From: Nitrobacter sp. Nb-311A
GTDB taxonomy: Bacteria; Pseudomonadota; Alphaproteobacteria; Rhizobiales; Xanthobacteraceae
Assembly: GCF_000152905.1 (NCBI RefSeq)
Contig: NZ_CH672416.1
Location: forward strand, 330,398-394,397
Direction: 5' to 3'
Length of the DNA stretch: 64,000 bases
The notes beneath the pieces are model-generated. The model did no database searches, had not been told where the DNA came from, and saw nothing but the letters and a program-made list of their open reading frames with translations. How positions within the stretch are numbered: the first letter of the stretch is position 1; every line of letters begins with the position of its first letter. The position numbers and the translations under genes were made by a program. Shown here piece by piece: positions 35,984 to 59,827 of the stretch.

Positions 35984-36073
35984 GGAGAGGTGGCAGAGTG
36001 GTCGAATGCACCGCACTCGAAATGCGGCATAGGTGCAAGCCTATCGGGGGTTCGAATCCCTCCCTCTCCGCCA
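35984..36073 (+). tRNA. tRNA-Ser(CGA)
   Basis: A complete class II tRNA of 90 nt including the encoded CCA. The acceptor stem GGAGAGG (35984-35990) pairs with CCTCTCC (36063-36069). The anticodon stem CCGCA/TGCGG encloses loop CTCGAAA, with anticodon CGA at 36018-36020, reading UCG. A long variable arm and GGTTCGAATCC T-arm are present. The integrase begins 87 bp downstream. Confidence 0.97.
36050..36073 (+). other. Probable attL at the tRNA-Ser 3' end
   Basis: Tyrosine-integrase islands usually recombine in the T-arm and acceptor part of a tRNA gene, and the integrase starts right after this one. The exact core cannot be set because no second copy of this 3' sequence was found up to 64000. 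Confidence 0.55.
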
Positions 36074-36159
36074 CCGGCACAAAGTATCCAATGAAATCAA
36101 CAGGTCATTGATCGCCATAGGCTTTTTTCCGCCCGACTGGTACACACGGGTGGTACACA

Positions 36160-43961: not shown

Positions 43962-44443
43962 AGGTCGCCCACGACGTCTATGCCGAGACCAATCCTGCCT
44001 TCTGCGCGGCCGTTCTCGTCGAGTTCACCAAAACGTATGTGTCGATGCGGCCTGAGGGGCCGGAGACGCCAGCTGTGTATCTAGCGCTGCCAGTCGCGCT
44101 CTCGGGCGAGCTCGCTAGCACTTTCGCCGGGACGAATAAGAACACTGGCCTACTCGAATGGCTGGAGCGCAGCCCACAGGTCCGAGTCGGGCTGGCCAAG
44201 CGGGCAAACGCCTCACTGGACATCGTTACCGAGGCGATTCGATTTGGGTGCTTCGCACAGCTGCTGATCTTGGGCAAAGGGACGTTCCTTAGACTTGGAG
44301 ACAAGAAGTTGAAGCCGAGCGCAATCAGCGCGCTTGGCCAGGAGCCGGCGCAGGCAATGAAGCGGGCCGGACGCCTTGGGTATTGGTTTGCCGCAGCAGG
44401 CTCAACCCGCACGGTTTTTGATATGATGGGACTAACAGCATGA
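43958..44443 (+). CDS. ABC-3C system middle component
   Basis: 161-residue protein that fits the middle component of ABC-3C systems: VYAETNPAFCAAVLVEFTKTY at the N-terminus and GLLEWLERSPQVRVGLAKRA are family text, and it lies between the effector and the ATPase with ATGA overlaps on both sides. No catalytic motif is evident. It probably links effector and ATPase. Confidence 0.82.
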   Translation: MKVAHDVYAETNPAFCAAVLVEFTKTYVSMRPEGPETPAVYLALPVALSGELASTFAGTNKNTGLLEWLERSPQVRVGLAKRANASLDIVTEAIRFGCFAQLLILGKGTFLRLGDKKLKPSAISALGQEPAQAMKRAGRLGYWFAAAGSTRTVFDMMGLTA

Positions 44444-46398
44444 CACGCTGGAACATCACCACGATCTTCTTCCTGGGCGTGTCCAGGCAGCGCCGAGAGG
44501 TGACTTTCGCGGCTGACGAACTGAACATCATCACGGGCGCCTCTGGCACGGGCAAATCGACCCTGATCAAGGCGATCGACTACTGCCTCGGCTCGAGCAA
44601 ATGCGAGCTGCCCGCCCATGTTCGCCGACGCAGCGTCGCGGTCGGAGTAAAATGGATCGCAGGCGACGCGGAGATGATCGTCGGACGCGTGATCCCGCCC
44701 GTAGGTCAGGCAACCAGCACGCGTATGTTCACCGCCACCGGTCGAAATTTGCCGCTGCCTGAGACGGTAGACGAGTTCGACGGTGCGACGACAGTTGAGG
44801 CTGCGAAGGCCTTTATCGAGCGCGCGTTCGGGATCGGCGATGTAATCTCGGAGCCGGATGTCGCTGGCGTGCGTGGGCGCGCCAGCGTGCGCCACGTCAC
44901 ACCCTATTTGTTTGTGACTAAGGAGGTCATATACAGCGAGTCAACCCTCCTCCACGGCTTGGAGAAGGCGGACAAGGCGCGCGACATCATCGCGGCTATG
45001 CCTTACTTCCTTCGCGCGACCGACGAGGCGAGCGCAATTGACGAGCGGCGGCTGCGGCAGCTGCAGCGGGCGCTCGAAAAAGAGGGGGCGAAAGCACGCT
45101 CGCGCGCGGCTGCCGAGACGGCGCTCAAGCAGCGCGCAATCAGTCTCCTTACTGAAGCCCATCGCATCGGGCTGGCCAAGTCGCCCCCGCCGGATGCGCC
45201 AGAGGTCACGCTTCTCGCAGAATTAAAGACGATATGTGAGACGCAGCTTCAGGCAAACACTTACCCGGACGAGGGTGAACTGGGAGCTCTCAATCGGCGG
45301 CGCCGAGAGATTTTGTCCGAAGTCAGTGCGCTACGTCGGCGCTTGCAGGCGACCCGAACGGCGCTGCGCGAGGCGACGGGCTTCCAAGGCGCCGTTTCGC
45401 GTCAGCGTGACAAGCTCATGCTAGCCGAGCACCTGCATCTCGACGGTATCGCTGAAGTTTGCCCAGTGTGCGAGACCCCATCCGAGCGCGGACGCGAGGC
45501 AGCCCAGGCTCTGCAGGCCACTCTGACGAAAGTGCGTGCGGAGAGCGTGGCCGTGGAGCGTGTGAGGCCCCGGCTTGTCGAGCATGATGGCGCGCTTGAG
45601 GAGGAGATCGGCCGGCTCAATGTCGAGCTGCGCCGCATCGACGATCAGATTCAAACTTGGTTGCGCCAAAGCGAGGAGACGCGCCGTTTGGCTGATCTTG
45701 GCCAGCTTCGAGCACATCTACTCGGCCGGATTTCTTTCTTTCTAGAAGCGAGCATAGACGAACCACATCAGGCCGCGCGCGATCTCAGCGTATTGCGCGC
45801 CGAGATCGCCGAGTTGGAGGCGCGGGTCGATCAGAAAGCGAAAGAAATCAAGCTGCGGCGGGCGGAGACAAGAATCTCGCAGTTTGCGTCTGAGGCATTT
45901 GTGGCGCTGCCGACTGTGGCGCCTTGCATCGGGTCAGAACTCGACTTCTCGTCCCGCCAGCCGGAAGTTACCGTCATTGAAGAGGGAAGCGGTGCTGTTC
46001 TAAGGCTTCCTGATGTCGGATCTGATCAAAATTATCTAGCGATCCACATAGCGCTCTCCTTCGCGTTACAGCGCTACTTCGAGACGGTGAATGCTCCGGT
46101 GCCAGGTCTGCTCGTGCTCGACCAGATCAGTCGACCTTACTTCCCAACAAGCGGCGAGGACGAGGACGAGGCCGAAATCTCCGGCGGAGAGGAAGATGAG
46201 GACGTGCAAGCGATGCGCAAGCACATCGACTTCCTGTTCGCCGAGACGGCTCGACGGAAGGGGCTACAGGTCCTGCTCATTGAACATGCATATTTCGCGG
46301 ACGACCCCCGCTACGTGACCGCCACTAGGGAGCGATGGACGCGTGCCTCGGGACAAGCCCTTATTCCACTCAATTGGCCGACACGCGGCGCCGAATAG
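44440..46398 (+). CDS. ABC-3C SMC-like ATPase (DUF3732)
   Basis: 652-residue SMC/Rad50-like ATPase. Walker A GASGTGKST is at residues 33-41, a long coiled-coil middle contains a zinc-hook-like CPVC (C341-C344), and the C-terminal DUF3732 region holds the Walker B-like LLVLDQISRP and IEHAYFADD. The acidic stretch (GEDEDEAEISGGEEDED) near the end is low complexity. Such ATPases sense or clamp nucleic acid and gate the effector. It ends 126 bp before the DISARM-like operon. Confidence 0.88.
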   Translation: MTRWNITTIFFLGVSRQRREVTFAADELNIITGASGTGKSTLIKAIDYCLGSSKCELPAHVRRRSVAVGVKWIAGDAEMIVGRVIPPVGQATSTRMFTATGRNLPLPETVDEFDGATTVEAAKAFIERAFGIGDVISEPDVAGVRGRASVRHVTPYLFVTKEVIYSESTLLHGLEKADKARDIIAAMPYFLRATDEASAIDERRLRQLQRALEKEGAKARSRAAAETALKQRAISLLTEAHRIGLAKSPPPDAPEVTLLAELKTICETQLQANTYPDEGELGALNRRRREILSEVSALRRRLQATRTALREATGFQGAVSRQRDKLMLAEHLHLDGIAEVCPVCETPSERGREAAQALQATLTKVRAESVAVERVRPRLVEHDGALEEEIGRLNVELRRIDDQIQTWLRQSEETRRLADLGQLRAHLLGRISFFLEASIDEPHQAARDLSVLRAEIAELEARVDQKAKEIKLRRAETRISQFASEAFVALPTVAPCIGSELDFSSRQPEVTVIEEGSGAVLRLPDVGSDQNYLAIHIALSFALQRYFETVNAPVPGLLVLDQISRPYFPTSGEDEDEAEISGGEEDEDVQAMRKHIDFLFAETARRKGLQVLLIEHAYFADDPRYVTATRERWTRASGQALIPLNWPTRGAE

Positions 46399-46524: not shown

Positions 46525-48129
46525 GTGGAGCCAAAGGGGGGCGAGACGACGCTGTTGACTCGAGCCCGTTTGGCTGCTCGGATTCTTGCGGCTGATGCCA
46601 CATCGATGCAAGCACGTGCCGACGCATGTCTAGGCTTACTCGCCGAGATCGGAGCGGATGAGCGGCTCGGGGCCCTCCGCAAGGCGCTCAAGATTTTGCC
46701 GGTCGAGGAGCGTCATTACTGGATTGGTACGCTGTACACGCTAATGCTGCCGACCAAGGTCCGGCGATCACAAGCGACCTATTTTACACCGCCGGGCGTG
46801 GCCGATGCGGTTGTAGAGTTGGCCATCGAGGCCGGATTTGATCTGGCAGGCGATGACGTGCTCGATCCGGCGGCCGGCGGTGCGGCCTTCTTGTCGACGA
46901 TCGCTGGTCGAATGGCCGCCGTAGGGCTTGCCGCGAACGAGGTCGCCTTTCGGCTTAACGGTATCGAGATCGACGCGGGCTTGGCAACCCTTTCCCGCCA
47001 CCTGATTGCCGATCGATTGGGCGCGGCATTGCCGCGAGATGTCGTCATCATCGGCGATGCGCTTCGAGTTCAAATCCCAGCCTCGTATGGGCTTGTCATC
47101 GCAAACCCCCCGTATGGTCGGATGTCGATCGACGACGTCCACGGCGAGGCGTGGCGGCGCGTTGCCCATACCGGCCACATCAATAAGTACGCGCTATTCG
47201 CAGAACTCTGCTTCCGCAATGCAAAGCCTGGAGGGGTAGTCGCGCTCGTTATCCCCTCGAGTTTTCGGGCCGGCCCCCTTTACGGCCGTATGCGTAAATT
47301 TATCCGATCGCAGGGAGAGGTGCTGACAATCGGCTCAATCGCCGACCGCGACGGCATTTTTCTCGACGTCGCCCAAGACATTAGTGTGTTGATTGCCCGC
47401 AAGGGAAAACCTCATCGTGCGGAAGCAATGGTGCGATTTCCAATCATCGGCGCGGCGGCCGCCATGACCCGCGTGTTTGAGCAGGCGCTACCGACAAAAC
47501 CTGACGCAGCTTGGCCGCTTCCCGCTTTCGATCCGCAGACGATCGGTGGCGCGACGCTGGCCGATTACGGGGTCAGCGCGCGCGCGGGATACTTCGTCTG
47601 GAATCGCGAAGGCGCCCGACTCGTGACCCAGCTCGGAAGCCGGCGTGGCTTTCCTCTGATTTGGGCGAAGAACGTGCAACCAGGAGAGCTTTGCCGGCCC
47701 GCCGGCAAGTTGGGTACCAGGATCGATTTTGTCACTTTCCAGGATGAGAGCCCGGCAGTGATCCGGTCAACGGCGGCCGTCATGCAACGTACAACTAACG
47801 ACAAACAGCCGCGACGGCTTATTGCGGCGATGGTGGATCCCGCCGTCGTCGCGCGGTGGGGCGGCTTCGTGTCGGAGAACCATACGATTGTGCTCACAGC
47901 CCAAGATCCCGAACGGCTCGCGCTTGCCGTCGCACTTCTCAATACCGCCGCGGTCGACCAGCGCTACCGCCGCGTATCCGGAACGGCGGCCGTCTCTGTG
48001 ACTCTGCTCCGACAGCTCGATCTTCCCACGCCGGCAGCGTTCCAGGCCGCGCTTTGCGAAACCGCCGGTGATACCGAAGCTGCGGCTCTCGCTGCGTATC
48101 GCCTGCAGGCAGACATGGTTGATGCTTAA
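46525..48129 (+). CDS. N6-adenine DNA methyltransferase of a DISARM-like operon
   Basis: 534-residue gamma-class DNA methylase. SAM-binding motif I is DPAAGGAAFL (residues 114-123), the catalytic NPPY is at 194-197, and YFTPPGVADAV is the conserved text in front of motif I. The C-terminal third (LPAFDPQTIGG, LIWAKNVQPGELCRPAG) looks like a target-recognition domain. I chose GTG 46525, which has GGGAGAGG 4 nt upstream; a longer frame from 46438 lacks an SD. In DISARM it would mark host DNA so that self is spared. It overlaps the next gene by one base. Confidence 0.88.
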   Translation: MEPKGGETTLLTRARLAARILAADATSMQARADACLGLLAEIGADERLGALRKALKILPVEERHYWIGTLYTLMLPTKVRRSQATYFTPPGVADAVVELAIEAGFDLAGDDVLDPAAGGAAFLSTIAGRMAAVGLAANEVAFRLNGIEIDAGLATLSRHLIADRLGAALPRDVVIIGDALRVQIPASYGLVIANPPYGRMSIDDVHGEAWRRVAHTGHINKYALFAELCFRNAKPGGVVALVIPSSFRAGPLYGRMRKFIRSQGEVLTIGSIADRDGIFLDVAQDISVLIARKGKPHRAEAMVRFPIIGAAAAMTRVFEQALPTKPDAAWPLPAFDPQTIGGATLADYGVSARAGYFVWNREGARLVTQLGSRRGFPLIWAKNVQPGELCRPAGKLGTRIDFVTFQDESPAVIRSTAAVMQRTTNDKQPRRLIAAMVDPAVVARWGGFVSENHTIVLTAQDPERLALAVALLNTAAVDQRYRRVSGTAAVSVTLLRQLDLPTPAAFQAALCETAGDTEAAALAAYRLQADMVDA

Positions 48130-49112
48130 TGGCGCGGCACCGCCCCTTTGACCGCGCACCGGGCACCGACCTGCGGGATCGACAGCTGCAGCGCCAGGCG
48201 CAGCTCGAAAAGCGGGCCGGACTAACGTCGAAGCTGTCTGTCAAAGTCTCGCGCCAGGCGGCGGAAACCACCGTTGCCAGTACCCCTGTTGAGCGCATCG
48301 ATCGGAACGTGGAAGGATACATGGCGGCGCTTGCAGTCCAGCCGTTCCACCGACTGGCATCTCTAGAAGTAGCAGAGCTCACGCCAGCCTACAGGAGGTT
48401 GGTGCGGTCCGCGGCGGAGGTAGCCCGAGATGGATCAGCGCAGGTGGTGATGCCATGGCCTCCGACGCGAATATCGCCTTCAGCGATCGCAGCCCTTTTG
48501 GCGATCGGCGTCGTCGGAAGTGCTGATGTCGAGCAGATCCTGATCGAGGGAGAATGGTCCAATACCCGCAAGCGAGCCGATGAGCTCCGGGCCGTCGTAT
48601 TTCCGTATGCGCGTAGCACGCACGCGTTGGCCCGTTCGGTACAGGTCGATCGCCATCTCCTCGGTGAAGTGCACTTCGAGCACCTCAAGCGCTACCTGAC
48701 GGGTGGTGCCGATGCGGCAAAAGACTACCATCAGGTTCTGGCGCGCGTGCGGGGATTGAGCGGGCGGGCAAAGGACGGCATGGACTACGCAGAGTTCGAG
48801 CATCCGATCTTGGACGAGATAGTCCCACACGGTTCGCCATCAGGAGCTCGGCCCTCCAATAGCTCATTGCTCTGGCGAACACGGAGCAAGACGGACATAG
48901 CGACGCACAAGCGTTCCGGCGAGGCCGACCATCCCGCGATGGCTCCATATTATCTTTATACAATCCGCGCTGGGGACCGCCCCGGCGCGGAGTTGAGAGC
49001 CATTCAAAGGGCACCGGACCTACTCATACTCGATCTGTCTAAAAGTGCGCGCGACCGGCTCGGCTGGAACTGGCAAAAGCACGCCGCGGACATGGTCGCC
49101 ACCATGCGGTAG
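48129..49112 (+). CDS. N-terminal fragment of the DrmE-like protein
   Basis: 327 residues ending at the TAG. The first 50 residues are charged; then VEGYMAALAVQPFHRLASLE and PDLLILDLSKSARDRLGWNW are recognisable as ordered segments, the latter resembling a Walker B-like strand. No complete catalytic motif is visible. If the stop is real, this truncated product would be made alone. Confidence 0.6.
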   Translation: MARHRPFDRAPGTDLRDRQLQRQAQLEKRAGLTSKLSVKVSRQAAETTVASTPVERIDRNVEGYMAALAVQPFHRLASLEVAELTPAYRRLVRSAAEVARDGSAQVVMPWPPTRISPSAIAALLAIGVVGSADVEQILIEGEWSNTRKRADELRAVVFPYARSTHALARSVQVDRHLLGEVHFEHLKRYLTGGADAAKDYHQVLARVRGLSGRAKDGMDYAEFEHPILDEIVPHGSPSGARPSNSSLLWRTRSKTDIATHKRSGEADHPAMAPYYLYTIRAGDRPGAELRAIQRAPDLLILDLSKSARDRLGWNWQKHAADMVATMR

Positions 49113-49241
49113 GTCCATCCATCTACCGGCATCCTCGCAATTGTTGACGATCCGTGGACTTACCGAGCCGCACGCTTTGACCTTCTCGGAACCAAGCAGC
49201 CTGGCCGCAAGGCAAAGACGCTGCCGGCCATTGGGCACGTT

Positions 49242-50879
49242 GTGTACTCGCCAGTGTCGGGACTCCTGCAGAATCCTGGACAGGCAGAACCGCAATTCGA
49301 GGGCGGCACGCGTATCAAGGTCGACGGTTTCTTTGGCGATGTCGATCGCAATATAGAACGGCTGCGGGGGCTGGCGAGCCGGCTAACGGAGCTAGGTGAC
49401 CTGACCGGCGCTGATGCGGTGAGGGTCGTTATCGCCACAGTTCGCCGCTCGGCGTGCCTGCCCGGCTCGATTGCCGAACTCAGCCGGTTTCTTGAACGAG
49501 AAACCTCCACGGCAACGGCGAACGACCAACTCGCGATCTACCGCGTCGCCGCAGAGCTCTCATGTCTTACCGATCCACGTAGCCCGGCCAGCCAGGCCGA
49601 CGCACAGGCGCAGGTGATGTCGGAAACAAGGGCCATCATGCGCTCGCTGGAACAGGCGACACCGATGTCGACGCTGATGGAGGACGCGATACAGCCGGCC
49701 CTTCGCTCGAGTTCGAGGTCAATCTTTCTGTTTCGCTCTGACATGGTCGCAGAATTTGCGGCCGATCGGCTATCGACGGCGCATGCGAAGCTGACGGAAA
49801 GGCTCGACGCTGGGATTATCCGGTTCGTAGGCGAGCGTGTCCTGAGTACGATCACGGCCATGCCCAACTCAATGCGAAACCAATTCAAGCGGGCGGTCGT
49901 CGTTGCCCCCACAAGGTCCGCGATCCTTGCGTCGCTTGCCGAGGCTTGGCTGCCCGAGCAGATCCTAATCTTGGCTGACGCCGACACGCTCGCCTTCGCC
50001 GCGCGCGACGCGAACTCTCTGGCCGACGAGATCGACATAGCCCCACTCGCTGCCCGGCTGCGATTGTTCGCGGCGCGTGCCACGGCGCGCGTTACCGAAA
50101 TTGGACGGCACAATGTGCAGCTCGACGCGGAGATGCCGCCCGACGATGTCGAGTTCCCAACCAGCTCCGTAGTCGACTTGAGCGGCGGAGTTCGGGGCGA
50201 GCGGCGCTTGATCGAAATCTCTATGGACAACGGTCAGAGGATCATCGCGCGCCCGTCGACCGGCATCGTCCTGCGCAATGACAACGCCACGACGACCGCC
50301 TTCATCGAGCGCCCGGCTTCGCAGGTGCAAAAGGGGGACGAGGTTTGCGTGATCGGCCCGGGCTTCATTGAACGGGCGCGCGCACTCGTCAACGTGCGCG
50401 CGACCGCGGTAGCAGAAATCCGCGAATACCATCATCAGGTCGCTCGCCGCTTCGGCGAAATCCCGGGCTCCTCGATCAACGAGCGCCTTCGGGCCGTCGT
50501 GTCTCAGATGGGAGTGCCGCTTATCTCGATCGATAGGGCGCGCTACTGGGTCGATCTCGACGGCGAACTCGACAAGCCGCTGCACGATGTCGTCCCCCAT
50601 GCCCCGCACGATCGCGATACCTTCATGCGCCTCACGGCGGCGCTCGGTATCGGCCAGAAGCTGGCGGAAAGCTTTTGGCTTTGGGCTGTAGTCGCACAGC
50701 GGTCGCACAGGCTGCGCGCAGGAAACATCTTCCACGATGCCTTTCGCGGCATTCTCACTGATCCGCATGCTGCGCTCGCAATCAATCGTAACCGTAGCGC
50801 CGACATTCGCGCGCTTCGCGCCATGGCCGAAGAACATGTAGCTATCGTCGCCGAAACACGGAACTTGGAGGCAGCGTGA
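49242..50879 (+). CDS. C-terminal fragment of the DrmE-like protein
   Basis: 545 residues from a GTG at 49242 that is probably not a real start, since the frame is open from 49113 with protein-like codons. AVVVAPTRSAILASLAEAWL and ILILADADTLAFAA suggest a nucleic-acid-enzyme-like fold, and the end (IGQKLAESFWLWAVVAQRSHR) is helical. The TGA overlaps the drmA GTG. Confidence 0.55.
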   Translation: MYSPVSGLLQNPGQAEPQFEGGTRIKVDGFFGDVDRNIERLRGLASRLTELGDLTGADAVRVVIATVRRSACLPGSIAELSRFLERETSTATANDQLAIYRVAAELSCLTDPRSPASQADAQAQVMSETRAIMRSLEQATPMSTLMEDAIQPALRSSSRSIFLFRSDMVAEFAADRLSTAHAKLTERLDAGIIRFVGERVLSTITAMPNSMRNQFKRAVVVAPTRSAILASLAEAWLPEQILILADADTLAFAARDANSLADEIDIAPLAARLRLFAARATARVTEIGRHNVQLDAEMPPDDVEFPTSSVVDLSGGVRGERRLIEISMDNGQRIIARPSTGIVLRNDNATTTAFIERPASQVQKGDEVCVIGPGFIERARALVNVRATAVAEIREYHHQVARRFGEIPGSSINERLRAVVSQMGVPLISIDRARYWVDLDGELDKPLHDVVPHAPHDRDTFMRLTAALGIGQKLAESFWLWAVVAQRSHRLRAGNIFHDAFRGILTDPHAALAINRNRSADIRALRAMAEEHVAIVAETRNLEAA

Positions 50880-53800
50880 AAGGCCTTTCAAGCAAACAGC
50901 TCGCCAACGTCGACATCGAACTCAAGGAGGCCATTTGCGACTCCTTGGTAAATGCGCTGGTTGCAAGGGTCAGCGGCAATGATGAGCGTGGCCGGACTAT
51001 CTTGGGCAATTCGCCGCGTCGCGGAATCTTCGCCGGGCAGTTGCTCCCGCGCTTCGATGTGGGTGGCGCGGTTGACGAGACCTCCGATATCCGGATCGCG
51101 GCGATCGGGATGGACCTCATTGTCAGAGCCGGCAGTGGCGCGACCATCCGGGTCACCCCGCGCTTTTCTGCATATGTGCGCGTCATTCCGCTTTGGCGGG
51201 ACCTGACTGCAGGCGGCGGCGAGCTCGATTTCGATTTCAGGCTGCTAAAGAGTATCCAGCAGCAGATCGACGATGCCATCAGAGCAGAACGCGTACCTGC
51301 GTTGCAAGCGGCCGGTGTTGATCGTCCCGATTGGAAAGGCATGGATGAAGCGAAGCGCGCAACCGTGCGCGCGCGGCGGACACAGATTCTCGCGGCAATC
51401 CGGACCAAAGCCTACGCGGCGCATGGCATCAAGCTCCTGTCCGGCGAACCTGAGAGTGAACCGGCTGATGCAGTTCTGCCGAACGACGGCGCAATAAGCG
51501 ATCCCAACATCCTCGACGACAACCCTCCCCAGCCCGCGCCGATCGCGCGCCTCGTGCGCGAAGGCCGTGCGATCCCGCTCGGCCTGGTTGATCCCGCGCC
51601 CGTTCCCGGCAAGTGGCGCCGGCTCGATCTGTCATTGCCGGCTATCGAATTTGCCAGTGACGCCGATGACGCCAGCCTCGCCGCGACAGTCGAGGCGTAC
51701 AACTCCTCGCTCAGGCAAGCGGTGGCCGCGCAACTGGAGGCGTGGGCCGCCGGCGACGGGTCGACCGAAGCTTGGCGTGATGCCGCAGTGCAGCCGGGCG
51801 AGACGCTTGACGAGGCCAAATGGACTGCGGCGACGGCCGCACTTGCCGCGCGGCCCGTTGAGCGCGCACGTGTTGTCCCAGACCTCTCCCGTGTGGTGGT
51901 GAAAGTAGAACGGCAAGCTGACTTCCTCGACCCCAGCCGCCTGTCGCTGCGGATCATGCTGGACAATCAGTCGCCCGAGCTCACGCCGCGGGACGCGCAG
52001 GGCCGCTGCAACACCGTTTTCTGCGCCAGCCTCTCGCTGCTGTTGCCCGAGGCCGCGCATCATCCGTTGCGACTCGACCGGGTGGAGCCGTCGTATCGTT
52101 TCCGCGACTATCTCGATTACCCGGCGATCGGCATCAATTGTGGTGTCGAGGCCCGGCGCGCTGAAGGCCACCTTGGGCTCGATACCACGGTGGCTCCTCG
52201 CTTCGCGCAGCCGCGCATCGTCGCGCGTCGCATTGATGTATCGTTCGAGTTCGTGGTTTTGAAGGACCAGGGCTTCGATCCGACTAAGCTGCTCGAATTG
52301 CCTCGATCCTACGTCAAATGGATTGATCGACAGGAATTGCGCCTCCGGGACACGGTCGGGGCAGATCTCGATCCAGCCGATGCGGAAATTGAAGCCGCGC
52401 GGTTGCGCAAGGACATTGCCGCTCAGCGTGCCGAGGCGCGCTACATTGAGCGCGGCATCGAAGTCCTGATGGCCTCGAAGATCGCATACGAGTGCTTATC
52501 TGGAGCGAGCCTGGCAGAACGAGAAGCGCTCGAGCGCAGGGCCGCGCCGTGGCGGGCGTGGACCATGACCAATGAAACTTTCGCGCTTCGCGACGAGTAT
52601 GACCCCAAGCGAGGTTGGCGCCTCTTCCAAATAGCCTTCGTCCTGGCACATGTGCCGGTCTTTGCCTCACACATGACTGAGTGGCGCGAATTCCACGACC
52701 CTGAACTCGACGAAGAAGGTGTCAGCCTCCTATACTTCCCCACCGGTGGCGGAAAGTCCGAGGCCTTCTACGGCGCTCTGCTGTTCGCCATGTTTCTCGA
52801 TCGTTTGCGCGGGAAGGATCGGGGCATCACAGCGATGATCCGCTACCCTCTGCGTTTGCTCACGCTGCAGCAGGCGCAACGCCTACTCAAGCTTGTTGTG
52901 CGAGCGGAGATTGTGCGCCGCAAGCACAAAGCTGGACATTGGCCCTTCGAGATGGGCTTCTGGGTTGGAAATCAGAACACGCCGAATCACTACCGCGCGT
53001 TCCGCGCCGATATCCCTCTTGCGAGCGATGAGGGGTTCACTGACGACAGCGAGCTCGATGGTAAATCCGGTAATGAGGAGCAACGCGCACAGGGTCGTCG
53101 CTACGTCGAGGCGCTCGAGGCGTATGACAAGATCCCCGAGTGCCCGATTTGCGGCAAGCCGACGGGTTTAAGGCGCGACGAAGGTGAAAGCCCGTTCGGC
53201 AAGCGCGCGGTAATTGTTTGCTTCAACGAAGGCTGCACATGGAATCGCGAGCATGGCGGGCGGCATCCCCTGCCGTTCTTGCTGACCGATGACGCGATCT
53301 ACGCTCGCGCACCGGCCATAGTCCTGGGGACAGTCGACAAGCTCGCGATGCTCGGACAACACACTGCGACAGTCAGCAAGGTGCTGGGCATGTTCGGCCT
53401 AGCTCGCAGGATGGACAGGTGGGGCAATTTCGATACGCCGCGGCGGGAGGACGACCTTCGGCGCGACCCCGCCGACGATGACTGCTTCAACGTCTTTCCG
53501 GCCTATGCCAACGGCCAACGCGTCTTCCACGATCCGTTCCCGTCGCTCATCATTCAGGATGAGGCCCACCTACTGGAGGAAAGCCTCGGTACCTTCAGCG
53601 GGTTGTTCGAGACGCTGCTGGAAACGGTCATGAAGGACGTAGCGGACATGGCGGGCGACGGACTTGAGGTCGCGCGTCGCTGGACGGGGGACGCGTGGGG
53701 CGCCCCACGTATGCCGAAGGTCATCGCAGCGACAGCCACGATCTCCGCGCCCGAGCGTCAGCTCGAGACCATCTATCAGCGTCTCCCGCTTCGTTTTCCA

Positions 53801-55222
53801 TACCCCGGGCCAGACCTCTACCACTCGTTCTTTGCCGAACCGGCCGACCCGCCTGCAGGCAATGGGGAACGCGTCGCGTTCACTGCAGCCCTTCCATTCA
53901 CAATGCGGCCCGAGCAGACTGCGCCCTGGATGCGGCTCTACGTGTCGCTTATGACGAACGACGCCACCCACACAGTGACCACGGTCGGCGTGCTGGCGGC
54001 GTTCCATGGCATCGTCACTTCCCTGTGGGATGGCTTGCTCGACGATAACCGCCGAGCGCCCACCGTGGCCTTGATCCGCTCGGCAATACCCCAGGGGACG
54101 GCGGGAGATTGGCACCGAGCGGCGATAGATCGCGCTATCGCCCGAGGCCGGGCAGACGAGATCATGGCTCTCGTCGACCTTCATCGTATCGCGCTCGCCT
54201 ACGTCACCAACAAAAAGGGAGGCGATCAGATCATCGACGCGTTGAGCGCCGCGGTCGAACACCAGCATAGGCGCATCGGAAGAGCGCATACGGCCTTCGA
54301 AAGCCGCCTTATTTCTGGCGGCATCGACATGAAGGACATCCAGGGGGTCATGGAGGATGCCGAGACCTCGTTCGAAGGTGCTATCTATCCCGACATTGCA
54401 ACGACCCTACGCAATATTGTGGCTACCTCCGCGATAAGCCACGGCGTGGATGTCGACCGATTCAACAGCATGTTCTTCGCCGGTTTGCCATCGGACATTG
54501 CCGAATATATCCAGGCTTCGAGCCGCGTCGGACGTACGCATGTCGGTTTTGTCATACTGCTTCCCACGCCCCAGAACCGCCGTGACCGCTACGTCATCGA
54601 GACCCATGACATCTTCCATCGTTTCCTTGAACGGATGATTGCGCCGCCGGCTGTCGAACGCTGGGCAGAAAACGCGATCAAGCGGACCATGGCCTCATAT
54701 GTCCAGACGTGGGCGATGCTACGCGAGGCGCGCGAGTTCATCGCGCAGGAGGACTGCAGAAAAGCAGAGGTAAACCACATGGATCAAATTAGCCGGTTTG
54801 CCACTCTGGCGCGGCGCAATCATGTGGCCTTCTGCGAGGCGCTTGGCGAATTCATGCTGCGGGCGAGCGGCTTCGCCGGAAGAGGAGCCTCAAAGCTGGG
54901 AACGCCCCACTACGCGGAGTTTTACCGTGCCCTTGTCGAGAAGCAGGTCGACACGTTCGTGCGCGACATCTCCAATCGGGGCACAATCGCGAGCCTGCGT
55001 GACTATTGGGATGACTTGCCGGCGTTTCGCCCTCCGATGACGTCGCTGCGAGATGTCGACGAGGCGGGGTACATTGTCGCCGCTGGTCGCGATCCGCTGG
55101 CCCGTGGGCGATCCACGGATGTAGACCGACAAGACCTCGCCAAGGTCATGCGCGCGATCAGGTCACAACGAGGGACGGCCTCGGAGATGGACGCGGACGG
55201 AGGCGGCTATGAGCGTGGGTAA
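50876..55222 (+). CDS. drmA: DISARM helicase DrmA
   Basis: 1448-residue superfamily 2 helicase. Walker A PTGGGKS is at residues 622-628, the DEAH box (D895-H898, QDEAHLLEES) and ATATISAPERQ (motif III) follow, and SSRVGRTHVGF near residue 1215 is motif VI. A CPIC (756-759) with later cysteines suggests a zinc site between the helicase motifs. The first 600 residues are a long unassigned region. DrmA with DrmB forms the core that loads on phage DNA ends in DISARM. It starts at a GTG overlapping the DrmE-like stop and overlaps drmB by 14 bp. Confidence 0.88.
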   Translation: MKGLSSKQLANVDIELKEAICDSLVNALVARVSGNDERGRTILGNSPRRGIFAGQLLPRFDVGGAVDETSDIRIAAIGMDLIVRAGSGATIRVTPRFSAYVRVIPLWRDLTAGGGELDFDFRLLKSIQQQIDDAIRAERVPALQAAGVDRPDWKGMDEAKRATVRARRTQILAAIRTKAYAAHGIKLLSGEPESEPADAVLPNDGAISDPNILDDNPPQPAPIARLVREGRAIPLGLVDPAPVPGKWRRLDLSLPAIEFASDADDASLAATVEAYNSSLRQAVAAQLEAWAAGDGSTEAWRDAAVQPGETLDEAKWTAATAALAARPVERARVVPDLSRVVVKVERQADFLDPSRLSLRIMLDNQSPELTPRDAQGRCNTVFCASLSLLLPEAAHHPLRLDRVEPSYRFRDYLDYPAIGINCGVEARRAEGHLGLDTTVAPRFAQPRIVARRIDVSFEFVVLKDQGFDPTKLLELPRSYVKWIDRQELRLRDTVGADLDPADAEIEAARLRKDIAAQRAEARYIERGIEVLMASKIAYECLSGASLAEREALERRAAPWRAWTMTNETFALRDEYDPKRGWRLFQIAFVLAHVPVFASHMTEWREFHDPELDEEGVSLLYFPTGGGKSEAFYGALLFAMFLDRLRGKDRGITAMIRYPLRLLTLQQAQRLLKLVVRAEIVRRKHKAGHWPFEMGFWVGNQNTPNHYRAFRADIPLASDEGFTDDSELDGKSGNEEQRAQGRRYVEALEAYDKIPECPICGKPTGLRRDEGESPFGKRAVIVCFNEGCTWNREHGGRHPLPFLLTDDAIYARAPAIVLGTVDKLAMLGQHTATVSKVLGMFGLARRMDRWGNFDTPRREDDLRRDPADDDCFNVFPAYANGQRVFHDPFPSLIIQDEAHLLEESLGTFSGLFETLLETVMKDVADMAGDGLEVARRWTGDAWGAPRMPKVIAATATISAPERQLETIYQRLPLRFPYPGPDLYHSFFAEPADPPAGNGERVAFTAALPFTMRPEQTAPWMRLYVSLMTNDATHTVTTVGVLAAFHGIVTSLWDGLLDDNRRAPTVALIRSAIPQGTAGDWHRAAIDRAIARGRADEIMALVDLHRIALAYVTNKKGGDQIIDALSAAVEHQHRRIGRAHTAFESRLISGGIDMKDIQGVMEDAETSFEGAIYPDIATTLRNIVATSAISHGVDVDRFNSMFFAGLPSDIAEYIQASSRVGRTHVGFVILLPTPQNRRDRYVIETHDIFHRFLERMIAPPAVERWAENAIKRTMASYVQTWAMLREAREFIAQEDCRKAEVNHMDQISRFATLARRNHVAFCEALGEFMLRASGFAGRGASKLGTPHYAEFYRALVEKQVDTFVRDISNRGTIASLRDYWDDLPAFRPPMTSLRDVDEAGYIVAAGRDPLARGRSTDVDRQDLAKVMRAIRSQRGTASEMDADGGGYERG

Positions 55223-57437
55223 GCGGGGCGGAGGAGACTGGCGGACCGCGAACCGGCGGCCAGCGGCCTTCGGCGGCGTGAGGCGCGAGGCTGAAATCCT
55301 CGAGCCCCCAACCATGTCGAGATCGCGCGTGCAAATAGCAGGGTCATACGCACCCGGGGTGCTCATGACCTGGGAGGGCGGAAAGGGCATCTGCCGCTCT
55401 GTACCGTTGGCAAACGACATCACCAAGCAACTTAACCGAACCACAATCGACCTCGTGTTCGAACACCTGAGCGACTCCGCCACCAACTGGCGTGACCGAG
55501 CCATGAAGGCGGTCCCCAACGCGCTTCCCGAGCTCGTTCTTGACGCCCCCTTCCGCGACTCAAGAACCGGCGAGGTCCGGATAGAGCGCGGTGATTTCCA
55601 GATGACCGGGCCGGACCGCGTCGGGTACGTCCCCTACCCGTTGCTTTACCGCTGCGGTATCTGTGGCTCGACGCGCGAGTACGAAAGCGTCGCCGATCAG
55701 GCGCGGCAGCCACTCCCCAAGAAATGCAATGGCCACGATGCCCGCTGGACGCAAGTCGACGTTGTCTACGTGCACTGGTCTGGTGAAATTCAACCTCTAA
55801 GTCCGTTCAACTTCAACTTCGACCCACAGACCGGAGGTACGCGCCAGATCAGAATGTGCACTTGCGGTTCGGCCAGCTTCAAGCTGCGCAACGAAGCTCC
55901 GGTATTCTCGGAATGGCGTTACGTTTGTGAAGGCTGTGGGGACGCGCGTTCGCTCAAGAAAGCTGATCCGGAGGTGCTCGCACGGCTACAGACCGAACAA
56001 AACGCCGGCGGGCGCGCCTTCCAGTGGATCGAAGTCAACATGCTGCCGGTGTCTTACCGCGCCAACTCGACCTTCTACCCCCAGCGCACTAGCTTCATCG
56101 AATTCCAGGACAGCTCTGTCGTTGAGCTGATGACCCCACCGCGCGCCGGAGAACTCGTCGCGAAGCTGGCCCAGATACATCACATTCCATTCGCTGAGCC
56201 ATCGGACGATGAGGTGCGAGTCATGGTTCAGGCCGATCCGACGCATGCTGGAGACTGGGACGACTACGTCAGTTTCCTCGACATGGCGCGGCGGGCGGAA
56301 GAAGGTGGTCGCCCAGAACGCGCGCGCGCATACCGCGACAATGCGCACGAGCTGCGCGAGGGTTGGTTCGCCGCCGGCATCGTCGAGCGTGGCAGACTTG
56401 GTAGCCCAGGCGTGCTCCAGGCCATCAACGTGCGTGAAGACTGGACACGCCGATACGACCCAATCCGACTTACCATTCAGCACAATGCGTTTATCCGTGA
56501 ACACATTGAAGAGGCGATGGCGCGACACGCGGCCGTTGACGTCATGGAGCCAGACATCACCCTAACCGACGTCGTCAATGACCCGCTGCGGAAGACGCGT
56601 TACCAAGCCAATATCGGCAACCTTCTCGAACATCTGGGCGTCGAGCGTCTGGTGATCGTCCGCAATCTGCCCATCTGCGAATTCAGCTTCGGCTATACCC
56701 GGGTCTCCGCTACGCCCGTCTACAAGCGAGAGCACCAGGGCATAAGCGTCGATATGCCGGTGCGCCTCAAGGCTTTCGATCAGCTTCCGGTCCAGGGAAC
56801 GAAGCGACCAATCTACATCACGCAGCAGCAAAACGAGGCGCTCTACTTCAAGCTGGACGAGGCGAGAGTGCTGCGCTGGCTGAAGGCCAACATCGTGGTC
56901 GACATTCCCGACGAGAGTTTAGGCCGGGCATATCTAGAACGGTATGAGGATTTTGGACCATTCTTGGAAATGTTCAAGGATCGTGAGGGTACAGGAGCCT
57001 ATCCACGCACGCTGCCGGCCTATGTTTACCTACTTCTTCATACCCTGTCGCACCAGATGATGCATTCGTTAGCTGACGCGTCCGGCGTCGACCGTGACGG
57101 CATTGGCGAGCACATTTTTCCCGCGGATCTTGCTTTCGTGATCTATCGCAAGGGTATGACGCCCGACCTCGGCAACATCTCGGCGATGTGGCGCAACCAC
57201 GCGGACGAATTCCTGCGCCGAGCTATCGCCCCACGCATGTTGAGATGCGGGTCCGGGAGTTTGTGCGACGCGAGAGGTGGAGCTTGCCCTGCCTGCGTGA
57301 TGGTGTCAGAGGTGAGCTGCATTGCCTCCAACCTGTTGCTGTCGCGCGCCGTACTCAAGGGCGGCAAGGGTCCCGAATGGGAGCCGAAGTCGGCGCCCGA
57401 TCTGGTTGGTTTCTTCGATGTAGCTCTTTCGAAATGA
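55209..57437 (+). CDS. drmB: DISARM protein DrmB (DUF1998)
   Basis: 742 residues. An N-terminal zinc-like CGICGS (C149, C152) is followed by a long central region. The C-terminal DUF1998 domain has LLHTLSHQMMHSLADASGV and GEHIFPADLAFVIYR, and a cysteine cluster C680-x5-C686-x6-C693-x2-C696 (CGSGSLCD, CPAC). It is DrmA's partner in DISARM. The start ATG 55209 lies inside the drmA end, and the stop overlaps drmC (ATGA), which shows tight coupling. Confidence 0.9.
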   Translation: MSVGKRGGGDWRTANRRPAAFGGVRREAEILEPPTMSRSRVQIAGSYAPGVLMTWEGGKGICRSVPLANDITKQLNRTTIDLVFEHLSDSATNWRDRAMKAVPNALPELVLDAPFRDSRTGEVRIERGDFQMTGPDRVGYVPYPLLYRCGICGSTREYESVADQARQPLPKKCNGHDARWTQVDVVYVHWSGEIQPLSPFNFNFDPQTGGTRQIRMCTCGSASFKLRNEAPVFSEWRYVCEGCGDARSLKKADPEVLARLQTEQNAGGRAFQWIEVNMLPVSYRANSTFYPQRTSFIEFQDSSVVELMTPPRAGELVAKLAQIHHIPFAEPSDDEVRVMVQADPTHAGDWDDYVSFLDMARRAEEGGRPERARAYRDNAHELREGWFAAGIVERGRLGSPGVLQAINVREDWTRRYDPIRLTIQHNAFIREHIEEAMARHAAVDVMEPDITLTDVVNDPLRKTRYQANIGNLLEHLGVERLVIVRNLPICEFSFGYTRVSATPVYKREHQGISVDMPVRLKAFDQLPVQGTKRPIYITQQQNEALYFKLDEARVLRWLKANIVVDIPDESLGRAYLERYEDFGPFLEMFKDREGTGAYPRTLPAYVYLLLHTLSHQMMHSLADASGVDRDGIGEHIFPADLAFVIYRKGMTPDLGNISAMWRNHADEFLRRAIAPRMLRCGSGSLCDARGGACPACVMVSEVSCIASNLLLSRAVLKGGKGPEWEPKSAPDLVGFFDVALSK

Positions 57438-58000
57438 CCGACGAGGTCCTGATCTCGCCGCGTGCAACCGCGAGGCTGGTTGTGACAATGCCGCCGGCGC
57501 CGAGTCGGCTTGCCGACGCACTCGCGGCTGATATCGCCAGCGACTATGTCACGCTTACGCCGACGACGGATGCCTTTCGGCACTTAGCACTGTTGGCACG
57601 CCAGAGGTTCACGGTCATGATTCCGTACATGGATCGGATTGGGGCAGACTGGGCCACTGAGTTGTTCGAGACTACGCAAGCCATAGAACGTATTCTGGTA
57701 ATCAGGGATGCTTCGCAGATCAGCGGCTGCGGCGAGGCGGGACGGCGGCTCGAAAGGGCGACGACCCGCATTATCGATTATGGAGGTGCTGGCCTCACAC
57801 AAGAGGCGTTCCACGCCAAGATCGTGCTAGCGGATGGCGTCGCGGCCTATGTGGGCTCGGCCAATCTGCTCCGGCGCTCGAAACTTGCTAACCTGGAATG
57901 CGGGATTCTAGTTGAAGGTCCTGCCGTGCATGCTGTCAAGATCCTGATCGATGCGGTTGTCAACATGGCGGCGGGAGCCAGAGCGGTGCCCGACATCTAA
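57434..58000 (+). CDS. drmC: DISARM phospholipase D-like nuclease DrmC
   Basis: 188-residue protein of the PLD superfamily with one HKD motif (H127-A-K129, D134 in HAKIVLADG) followed by AAYVGSANLLRRS. One-motif members dimerise to form the active site. DrmC is non-essential in some DISARM systems. The ATG at 57434 overlaps the drmB stop; the longer frame starts inside drmB. It is the last gene of the operon on this strand. Confidence 0.9.
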   Translation: MTDEVLISPRATARLVVTMPPAPSRLADALAADIASDYVTLTPTTDAFRHLALLARQRFTVMIPYMDRIGADWATELFETTQAIERILVIRDASQISGCGEAGRRLERATTRIIDYGGAGLTQEAFHAKIVLADGVAAYVGSANLLRRSKLANLECGILVEGPAVHAVKILIDAVVNMAAGARAVPDI

Positions 58001-58287: not shown

Positions 58288-58629
58288 CTACGCGACGATT
58301 CGTCCTTTGATCCGTGCCTCGTCGGCGTAGGTCGTGAGCGACTTGCACGCGACGAAGTGGAGGTCCCGTTCGACAGGTAAGCCGAGCGGCCCAGGAATCG
58401 ACATGATCTCGGTCAAGCTGACGTAACCGATCTCGGGACAACCCAAGCCTAAGTCGCAAAGTCCAAAAAACCGGTCCGGCTCATCCGGATCGCACTCCGT
58501 CAGTAGCCAGGTTGCGCCCGCATCCGGCGTGAACAATTTTACGACTGGAAAGGGATCGCGTTCGTCGACCAAGGCGTTGACAAGAAGGGCGACGCGATCT
58601 TCGACAGTGAGCAGATCTGTCTCAGCCAT
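58288..58629 (-). CDS. DUF2958 domain protein
   Basis: 113-residue protein of the DUF2958 family: VKLFTPDAGATWLLTECDPD, FGLCDLGLGCPEIGYVSLTE and LGLPVERDLHFVACKSLTTY are the recognised text. It is usually found on plasmids and integrative elements, function unknown. ATG 58629 overlaps the stop of the upstream nuclease-like gene (ATGGCTGA), so the two are coupled. The longer frame to 58872 is antisense to the other gene and is not used. Confidence 0.85.
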   Translation of the reverse strand: MAETDLLTVEDRVALLVNALVDERDPFPVVKLFTPDAGATWLLTECDPDEPDRFFGLCDLGLGCPEIGYVSLTEIMSIPGPLGLPVERDLHFVACKSLTTYADEARIKGRIVA

Positions 58630-59803
58630 GAAAGGTCTCCGCGATATCGGAGACTTCGGCTTGGCCGCCCGGTTGAGTGTGCCTGGTGCGGGATCCTGCT
58701 TTGCGAGGCCGCTTCTTGCTCTTGGCGACGGATGTTGCTGTCGTAGAATTCGGCGTCTCGCTGCCCGGCACCTTCGCCACAATGACAGCAAGAGCGGCGT
58801 CATAAACGCGCTGGAAGTCGCAGTAGCGCTTCCAAAGCTGCTCCGCCGTTTCTCGATCGCCCGCCACGTCAATAGCGTCGATGAATGTCTCCAGGGTGAA
58901 GTGCTGGAACCGGACCCTGGTAGGGTCGTCCTCCGAGAGCGGGAGCAGTTCGCTGGCGTAGACGCGGAAGGCGGCGTCGACGCGCCGGTTGAGGCGGGGA
59001 CCTACGCCAACGAACATCGCTCGCGGTGTGATGCCGTGATCGACCGCGAGTTGGGCGACGCAATGCTCTCGCATCAACTGCTCAATGAGCGGCGCTCGGA
59101 GAATTGCGCTCTCGGGATCCTTGTAAAGACGGACCTCTTTCAACGCCTCGCTATAGCGGTCGCGCCACCGGGCCACGTTGGTCGGTTCTTCCGAATACTT
59201 GACCTCGACGTATACGATGGCGGACTCGCCGTCTGGCGTCGTCACGTGAATGGCGACATCAAATGCGGTACGGTCGGCAAGGAAGCGCTCGTCGCGACGT
59301 CCCGGGGAATGTTCAAACGCGATGCGCTCGACGGAATGGACGAATTCGGGCAGCAATTGGCGGAAGACGTTTGTCGCCAATTTTGTATCGAGAGCGAGCG
59401 GACCGAAGGCATTCGCCACGAGGCACATGGACGTCAATGTGTTGGTCATGAGGCGATCTTCGTCGACCGCTGCATCGTCCTCGCGAAGCAGAAGAAACTC
59501 ACGGAGTGCCAGCAGGTGAACCTGGGGGGAGATGAAGTTCAGACCAGTTTCGGCCGCGTCGGCTCGAAGGTAGGAGCCGAGGTGGGCGCCGTGCTCTTTC
59601 ACGTCAGCGCTCGGAATGCCTTGATCATGCATCCACAAAATTTGGAGCAGGCGTGCGGCCCGCCGAAAGCGCGAGTCGATTAGGCAGTGCGAACCGTAAT
59701 GTTTAGCGATAGCGTCGCTGACGAACGGTGTCCGTCCGAGGCTGGCAGCTTTGGGAAGCGTCCCAATCTGGACTTCCGACGGAACAGTAGAAATTTTCGG
59801 CAT
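58622..59803 (-). CDS. PD-(D/E)XK nuclease-like protein
   Basis: 393-residue protein with D182 (AFDVAIHV) and YVEVKYSE (E200-x-K202), the D...ExK core of PD-(D/E)XK enzymes, preceded by helical EFVHSVERIAFEHSP. The C-terminus is a Lys/Arg-rich tail (SKKRPRKAGSRTRH). ATG 59803 with GGAG upstream was chosen; GTG 59827 is possible. It is transcribed with the DUF2958 gene. It resembles plasmid and island nucleases of unknown target, and could be restriction-like. Confidence 0.72.
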   Translation of the reverse strand: MPKISTVPSEVQIGTLPKAASLGRTPFVSDAIAKHYGSHCLIDSRFRRAARLLQILWMHDQGIPSADVKEHGAHLGSYLRADAAETGLNFISPQVHLLALREFLLLREDDAAVDEDRLMTNTLTSMCLVANAFGPLALDTKLATNVFRQLLPEFVHSVERIAFEHSPGRRDERFLADRTAFDVAIHVTTPDGESAIVYVEVKYSEEPTNVARWRDRYSEALKEVRLYKDPESAILRAPLIEQLMREHCVAQLAVDHGITPRAMFVGVGPRLNRRVDAAFRVYASELLPLSEDDPTRVRFQHFTLETFIDAIDVAGDRETAEQLWKRYCDFQRVYDAALAVIVAKVPGSETPNSTTATSVAKSKKRPRKAGSRTRHTQPGGQAEVSDIAETFHG

Positions 59804-59827
59804 CGATATCTCCACGAGAGTTGACAC

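What the first reader, a model, noticed from the sequence alone, without database searches (positions are those of the whole stretch)
46525..58000. DISARM-like operon pairing an adenine methylase with a DrmE-like gene
Gene order is N6-adenine methylase (NPPY), DrmE-like (split), DrmA, DrmB, DrmC, all overlapping by a few bases. In the classes I recall, the adenine methylase goes with drmD (class 1), while drmE goes with the cytosine methylase (class 2). This operon has no SNF2-type DrmD in view, so it appears to be a mixed arrangement.
Basis: partly seen in the sequence, partly recalled or inferred. Interest (0 to 1): 0.75.

Follow-up and report, generated by a model that had tools for sequence, protein, structure and literature searches.

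The report
DISARM variant: adenine methylase, remote DrmE
The window carries a bacterial anti-virus gene cluster related to DISARM that pairs an adenine-marking enzyme with a very distant cousin of the DrmE protein; the same cluster recurs in related bacteria and fits neither standard DISARM class, but here the DrmE-like gene is cut in two by a stop codon.

Summary
The operon is real: N6-adenine methylase (46525-48129), a DrmE-position gene "X" (48129-50879), DrmA, DrmB and DrmC (to 58000). One in-frame TAG (49110-49112) interrupts X. X is one open frame in 29 of 31 other X loci examined, so the split is most likely a local lesion or sequencing error. No DrmE model in PADLOC, NCBIfam or Pfam recognises X. 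Profile-profile comparison nevertheless links about 180 C-terminal residues of X to DrmE proteins (score 57.6, E 2.5e-6; at most 19.0 in 200 column permutations). So "DrmE-like" holds as remote homology of one domain plus gene position. The predicted fold of X is an SF2 helicase-like core lacking Walker A and DEAH motifs, then a domain that weakly resembles inteins. A methylase lies directly upstream of X in 28 of 32 X loci; neither DrmD nor a cytosine methylase was detected. The 13 DrmA proteins sampled from X loci form one supported clade outside class 1. PADLOC's two class definitions both exclude this set. Verdict: a recurrent DISARM variant, not found described in the papers searched, whose window copy is probably damaged.

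The parts
46525..48129 (+). N6-adenine DNA methylase, 534 aa, TaqI/Eco57I-like (NPPY, motif I)
   Evidence: Pfam N6_Mtase 3.5e-10 and Eco57I 9.2e-8, above cut-off; PADLOC MTase_II 1.2e-95, no DrmMI model among its 24 families; PDB M.TaqI 6.8e-6; both motifs in 20 of 20 homologues found in 24 loci
48129..50879 (+). X, remote DrmE homologue, 916 codons, interrupted by one in-frame TAG
   Evidence: continuous frame; one open frame in 29 of 31 other X loci; DrmE link by hhalign
49110..49112 (+). in-frame TAG stop inside X
   Evidence: '1 TAG'; all 25 other rows of the X alignment have a residue there
48129..49109 (+). N-terminal piece of X (first RecA-like half, no Walker A)
   Evidence: AF2 model of the L007 homologue and fold searches; motif scans
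49113..50150 (+). X continued: helical part and second RecA-like half (boundary approximate)
   Evidence: dN/dS 0.10-0.12 for the whole part after the stop
50151..50876 (+). C-terminal domain of X: DrmE_C-related, possibly intein/Hint-like beta fold with a helical insert (boundary approximate)
   Evidence: hhalign to DrmE proteins; intein rows lead VIA-align, Z 7.6; Pfam Intein_splicing, sub-threshold, in 8 of 17 members, best 0.0089
50876..55222 (+). DrmA-like SF2 helicase, 1448 aa
   Evidence: PADLOC DrmA 6.3e-92; NF038325 7.1e-109, below its cut-off; PDB DrmA 7s9v 1.5e-47; Walker A, DEAH and motif VI
55209..57437 (+). DrmB-like protein with C-terminal cysteine cluster
   Evidence: PADLOC DrmB 4.4e-17; NF038324 2.2e-13, below cut-off; PDB DrmB 7s9v_B 0.029; cluster
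57434..58000 (+). DrmC-like phospholipase D-family nuclease, one HKD motif
   Evidence: PADLOC DrmC 1.8e-9; PLDc_2 above cut-off; HKD motif

Best explanation
This is a DISARM-family anti-phage operon of a recurrent but, as far as I could find, unnamed variant. Proposed working: the methylase marks host DNA with N6-methyladenine (activity inferred from motifs). DrmA and DrmB form the helicase/translocase that engages unmarked incoming DNA (inferred from solved DrmAB of Serratia, PMC9142583). DrmC cuts DNA (inferred from its HKD motif). X is a catalytically dead SF2 helicase-like scaffold with a C-terminal DrmE_C-type module; it binds DNA or DrmAB and sets where the machine acts (inferred). In this strain X is interrupted, so the system is probably crippled, unless the stop is a sequencing error or is read through.
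For: Family hits for methylase, DrmA, DrmB, DrmC. Methylase directly upstream of X in 28 of 32 X loci. X links to DrmE-slot proteins: score 57.6, E 2.5e-6 against 19.0 at most in 200 column permutations; leave-one-out 50.4-62.2; DrmE_C-matching segments of six proteins E 7.1e-7, of four E 1.3e-4 (score 42.5) against a permuted maximum of 20.9 in 100. SF2-like fold with no DE[AC][HD] motif in 23 of 23 homologues and no Walker A pattern in 22 of 23. 13 sampled DrmA from X loci form a clade, 100/100. dN/dS 0.10-0.15 on both sides of the stop (dS is above 1.3, near saturation).
Against: No DrmE HMM recognises X. The first 665 residues of X alone do not align with DrmE above noise (E 0.43). With only the five NF038316-matching proteins the hhalign score falls to 40.6, E 3.8e-4, prob 35.9. 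I chose the eight comparison proteins by position; L035 matches no DrmE model, and L029 does not match Pfam DrmE_C. Against single sequences X scored no better than background for six of the eight. DrmA and DrmB hits are far below NCBIfam cut-offs. DrmC was not found in 7 of 32 loci. No function was tested. The class 2 prototype (Bacillus) was not available for comparison.
Confidence: 0.75

Rival explanations
1. X is not homologous to DrmE: an unrelated large protein occupies the same slot, and the C-terminal similarity reflects a common Hint/HTH-like module.
For: No direct HMM match to any DrmE model; the N-terminal part is not alignable; the C-terminal domain weakly resembles inteins, a widespread fold.
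Against: Collinear C-terminal alignment over about 165 columns, far above permuted controls; a protein in the same slot directly before DrmA in L035, L038, L039, L040, L054, L055 (L029 and L030 have one gene between); lengths 792-906 aa in six of these eight (X 880-956); no Walker A in seven of the eight.
Confidence: 0.17
2. The two pieces are separate functional proteins (a split DrmE), made by reinitiation or stop read-through.
For: dN/dS is similar before (0.11-0.15) and after (0.10-0.12) the stop; L048 also has X in two overlapping frames.
Against: 29 of 31 other X loci have one frame; the first start codon after the stop is a GTG 43 codons on; L048 also breaks DrmA into several frames, so it looks damaged too. 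A recent nonsense change or an assembly error would give the same dN/dS.
Confidence: 0.12
3. It is an ordinary restriction-modification locus with helicase genes, not part of DISARM.
For: The methylase is closest to type II methylases.
Against: DrmA, DrmB and DrmC homologues with overlapping reading frames in a conserved order.
Confidence: 0.04

Closest known systems
DISARM class 2 (DrmMII, DrmE, DrmA, DrmB, DrmC)
   Same: DrmA, DrmB, DrmC and a protein in the DrmE slot; remote homology of X to DrmE proteins
   Different: Adenine instead of cytosine methylase; X unrecognised by DrmE models; DrmA in its own clade
DISARM class 1 (DrmD, DrmMI, DrmA, DrmB, DrmC)
   Same: An adenine methylase with DrmA, DrmB, DrmC
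   Different: No DrmD found; methylase 534 aa, while the three class 1 examples have 1308-1365 aa (L049, L050, L056); DrmA outside the class 1 group
DrmE_C-bearing loci with a DUF1156-like methylase (Streptomyces L055, Rubrobacter L040)
   Same: DrmE-like, DrmA, DrmB, PLD with an adenine-type methylase; DrmA in the same larger branch
   Different: Methylase of another family, divergently transcribed in L055; Pfam DrmE_C rings (over cut-off in L055, below it in L040)
ARMADA (Bell et al. preprint, PMC12458937; abstract, sections 3 and 26, part 1 of section 4 and search passages read)
   Same: YprA-family helicase with a methylase
   Different: ARMADA is described with BrxHII-like and PglX-like genes; here DrmB is a separate gene as in DISARM, and no SNF2-type DrmD was hit (the BrxHII-like family itself was not searched)
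XPF / Hef / RIG-I-like SF2 helicase fold
   Same: Fold of X residues about 60-659
   Different: X lacks Walker A and DEAH-type motifs

Membership tests
DISARM (any class) | DrmA helicase | tested here: met
   PADLOC DrmA 6.3e-92; 7s9v 1.5e-47; below the NCBIfam equivalog cut-off
DISARM (any class) | DrmB (DUF1998-type) | tested here: met
   PADLOC DrmB 4.4e-17, C-terminal part only; 0.029 to solved DrmB; below the NCBIfam cut-off
DISARM (any class) | DrmC PLD nuclease | tested here: met
   PADLOC DrmC 1.8e-9, HKD motif
DISARM class 1 (PADLOC type I) | DrmD present | tested here: not met
   no tblastn hit at 1e-6 with one DrmD query in window 36001-62000 or in 32 fetched loci
DISARM class 1 (PADLOC type I) | DrmMI methylase | tested here: not met
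   adenine methylase, but no DrmMI model among its 24 PADLOC families at E<=0.001
DISARM class 2 (PADLOC type II) | DrmMII cytosine methylase | tested here: not met
   methylase is N6 type; no cytosine-methylase hit with two queries
DISARM class 2 (PADLOC type II) | DrmE recognised by a DrmE model | tested here: not met
   0 of 5 X members in PADLOC and NCBIfam at E<=10; Pfam DrmE_C 0 of 9 X genomes or records against 3 of 3 comparison records, 2 of them over the cut-off
DrmE superfamily (remote homology) | profile-profile similarity to DrmE proteins above controls | tested here: met
   E 2.5e-6 and 7.1e-7, permutation controls; E 3.8e-4 and 1.3e-4 with the strictest sets; C-terminal domain only
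DrmE superfamily (remote homology) | same fold as DrmE over the full length | not testable with these tools
SF2 helicase, active | Walker A and DEAH-type motifs | tested here: not met
   absent from window X; Walker A pattern in 1 of 23 and DEAH-type in 0 of 23 homologues
Intein/Hint fold | fold similarity of the C-terminal domain | tested here: inconclusive
   intein rows lead with Z 7.6 (rmsd 2.3, 67 aligned); Foldseek 0 hits at E<=0.001; Pfam Intein_splicing best E 0.0089, no hit for the folded member itself
DISARM (any class) | anti-phage activity with host methylation | not testable with these tools
   needs experiment

The most novel reading that the evidence does not exclude
DrmE-family proteins, of unknown function so far as I recall, are dead SF2 helicases fused to an inactive Hint/intein-like domain whose helical, HTH-like insert sits where inteins carry their homing endonuclease (intein layout recalled). 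They act as the DNA-reading scaffold that lets DISARM swap its methylase (cytosine, DUF1156-like adenine, TaqI-like adenine) while keeping one helicase-nuclease core.
Probability: 0.3. Interest if true: 0.65.

Novelty: new variant of a known kind. Interest (0 to 1): 0.45.

Why it matters
It adds a recurrent DISARM arrangement that PADLOC's two class definitions exclude and whose middle gene its models miss. It also offers a testable idea of what DrmE is: a helicase-like scaffold without ATPase motifs. If the methylase can be swapped around a DrmE-DrmAB-DrmC core, then what tells self from non-self in DISARM may lie with DrmE rather than with the methylase class.

Tried and rejected
Relatives in viral contigs: six scans (X, DrmA, and the slot proteins of L030, L029, L035, L054) confirmed none. 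X as a single sequence in 289 genomes of the class: only the window's own. tblastn in plasmids with the L029 DrmE and with L028 (part of the L030 protein): no match; with L039, L054 and L055: only the query itself or records of the same species; with the X of L031 and L032: themselves or their species, plus one weak Sinorhizobium X hit for L031. Single-sequence hhalign of X against each slot protein was not significant; against 199 background ORFs, L054 and L040 ranked 1 and 2 of 210, but the other six DrmE-slot proteins ranked 15 to 187. N-terminal DrmE/X alignment: noise. PDB profile search with X: best E 0.23 to an unrelated-looking phage protein. An attachment-site repeat of the tRNA-Ser 3' end: no exact repeat of 16 or more bases elsewhere in the window; in the genome only partial matches that may be other tRNA genes. 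Papers: searches for DISARM with drmE/drmD, with ARMADA, with drmMII/class 2, with subtype/adenine methyltransferase, with intein/Hint, and for DrmE alone (30 of 136 listed, 40 of 61). In the listings and in passages of PMC9252829, PMC9142583, PMC12926258, PMC9716671 and PMC11705971 I saw no description of this arrangement or of a DrmE fold; PMC11705971 names a class 2 DISARM with DrmE in archaeal proviruses. The original DISARM paper is not held, so its subtype figures were not read.
Full report
OBSERVATION. The methylase carries NPPY and motif I, DrmA has Walker A, DEAH and motif VI, DrmB has the C-terminal cysteine cluster, and DrmC has one HKD motif. PADLOC gives DrmA 6.3e-92, DrmB 4.4e-17, DrmC 1.8e-9 and MTase_II 1.2e-95. 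The NCBIfam DrmA, DrmB and DrmC models match below their curated cut-offs, so this is a divergent set.

THE SPLIT. The two ORFs (48129-49112 and the one listed from 49242) are in one frame, separated only by TAG at 49110-49112; the frame is open from 49113. Relatives align straight through. Counting 31 X loci other than the window (L003-L026, L031, L032, L046-L048, L066, L067; L002 is left out as the same record as L016), 29 have X as one open frame. L019 and L048 are broken, and both also have broken frames in other operon genes. Against four relatives, dN/dS of X is 0.11-0.15 before and 0.10-0.12 after the stop, with dS above 1.3, so near saturation. That fits a recent lesion, a sequencing error or read-through; I think lesion or error most likely. 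Intact copies exist elsewhere.

WHAT X IS NOT. X and four relatives match nothing in PADLOC or NCBIfam at E<=10; further members L006, L022, L031 and L032 match no DrmE model in NCBIfam, nor do L022, L031 and L032 in PADLOC. Pfam gave no hit at E<=0.05 for either window piece, and no DrmE_C among the hits of 17 C-terminal members at E<=10. The DrmE models NF038316 and PF24957 do not find it in the window's genome. PF24957 finds none in 9 of 9 X-bearing genomes or records, while it finds all 3 comparison records, 2 of them over its cut-off.

WHAT X IS. The X family reaches Rhizobium (21-25% identity), Polaromonas and Afipia by iterative profile search (E 2.4e-37, 2.1e-32, 4.5e-20, then 1.4e-12). 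In other DISARM-like loci a protein of similar size sits directly before DrmA or, in L029 and L030, one gene further upstream. NF038316 matches L029 (6.5e-34), L030 (2.8e-25), L039 (3.2e-11), L054 (2.4e-9) and L055 (1.1e-5); only L029 and L030 pass its cut-off. Pfam DrmE_C matches L055 (1.2e-14) and L038 (9.8e-11) over its cut-off and L030, L040, L054 and L039 below it, but not L029 or L035. A profile of the C-terminal parts of eight such proteins, chosen by me by position, aligns with the X profile (X columns 714-896) with score 57.6, E 2.5e-6, prob 88.8. Two hundred column permutations reach at most 19.0, the reversed profile 15.3, and leaving out any one protein gives 50.4-62.2; using only the five NF038316-matching proteins gives 40.6, E 3.8e-4, prob 35.9. 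DrmE_C-region segments of six proteins give E 7.1e-7, and of the four best E 1.3e-4 (score 42.5) against a maximum of 20.9 in 100 permutations. The N-terminal parts alone do not align (E 0.43). These E-values are for one comparison each. So X is a remote DrmE homologue, shown for the C-terminal domain only.

FOLD. The AF2 model of the L007 homologue (77% identical to the window; pLDDT 73.7, pTM 0.63) resembles SF2 helicases over residues 60-659. Foldseek's 20 hits at E<=0.001 are SF2 helicases or Dicer-type helicase proteins, best FANCM 1.3e-6. VIA-align puts Hef first (Z 10.7, rmsd 10.6, 372 aligned), with XPF at Z 10.1 (rmsd 8.6, 373 aligned). TM-scores are low (0.24/0.34 for the best row), so domain placement is not reliable. 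Walker A is absent from window X and from 22 of 23 homologues, and DE[AC][HD] from 23 of 23. The C-terminal domain folded alone (pLDDT 75.7, pTM 0.52) gives no Foldseek hit at E<=0.001. In VIA-align its first seven rows are intein structures (Z 7.6 to 5.8), followed by cyanase (Z 5.3) and, lower, the controller protein C.AhdI (Z 4.9) for the helical insert. Pfam Intein_splicing is the commonest weak family, in 8 of 17 members with best E 0.0089, though not in the folded member; it also rings weakly (0.01) in the slot protein L035. Z under 8 may be chance, so the Hint reading is a lead.

DISTRIBUTION. X occurs in 4 of 397 genomes of the order and 3 of 398 of the phylum, the window's own included in both. 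In 28 of 32 X loci (window included) an N6-type methylase lies directly upstream; in L006 it lies after DrmC; in L005 none was found; L046 and L047 end just after DrmC and cannot tell. DrmC was found in 25 of 32; L024 ends before it. No DrmD or cytosine methylase was hit at E<=1e-6 in the 32 fetched loci (L002 included) and the window stretch searched.

DrmA TREE. Of 33 DrmA proteins, the 13 taken from X loci form one clade (100/100). It lies in a larger group of 18 (100/100) with L039, L054, L040, L055 and L053. The three DrmD-bearing class 1 loci fall in the other group of 15, together with L029, L030, L035, L038 and others. Order within the 18 is weak, long branches are flagged, the root is for drawing only, and I chose the rows from plasmid hits and fetched loci, so the tree shows separateness, not a complete history.

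COMPARISON WITH KNOWN CLASSES. PADLOC type I needs DrmA, B, C, D and MI and prohibits drmE; type II needs DrmA, B, C, E and MII (PMC9252829, passages). This operon meets neither. Bell et al. (PMC12458937; abstract, sections 3 and 26 and part 1 of section 4 read) mention many uncharacterised DISARM-like classes, so this could be one of them without being described. Bravo et al. (PMC9142583, passages) report that unmethylated DNA stimulates DrmAB more than methylated DNA and leave DrmE open.

MECHANISM. Shown: gene set, order, recurrence, motifs, remote DrmE link. Inferred: host N6 marking, DrmAB engagement of unmarked DNA, DrmC cleavage, X as a dead helicase-like scaffold. The window's copy is likely impaired because X is cut at codon 328 of 916.

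Noticed in passing
window 42744-46398: Upstream three-gene unit whose last gene matches LmuB (PADLOC 1.7e-107): a Lamassu-type defence system directly before the DISARM-like operon. The first two genes were not searched.
   Followed up: partly
window 35984-37680: tRNA-Ser(CGA) directly followed by what looks by eye like a tyrosine integrase gene: the stretch may be an integrated defence island. No exact repeat of the tRNA 3' end was found in the window.
   Followed up: partly
window 58622-59827: Minus-strand PDDEXK_13 nuclease-family protein (Pfam 2.1e-80) right after DrmC.
   Followed up: no
window 60501-64000: Pair of a VapE-like ATPase and a DnaX-like AAA protein with a long extra C-terminal part; possible further defence unit, runs off the window.
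   Followed up: no
L055 3994-15106 and L040 5022-16195: DrmE_C-matching protein, DrmA, DrmB and PLD with a DUF1156-like adenine-type methylase: another non-standard methylase pairing.
   Followed up: partly
L030 7613-12991: A 1792-aa DrmE-family protein with a Walker A motif near its N-terminus (residue 32), followed by a NERD/UvrD-type gene and DrmA.
   Followed up: no
L053 8491-12661 and L058 6117-13120: DrmA homologues preceded by a gene annotated as a sigma-70 family factor, in Roseomonas and Streptomyces.
   Followed up: no
L010 and L011: Paracoccus sp. IB05 and Tabrizicola sp. SY72 show identical coordinates and identities over the operon: recent transfer, shared element or contamination.
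   Followed up: no
L006 6347-9808 and L032 19212-22617: A gene pair annotated as ATP-binding protein and S8 peptidase lies near both X-type operons.
   Followed up: no
L003 and L049: One strain, Sphingomonas parapaucimobilis YK209, carries an X-type operon on one plasmid and a DrmD-bearing DISARM set between cas3 and casA of a type I-E CRISPR locus on another.
   Followed up: no
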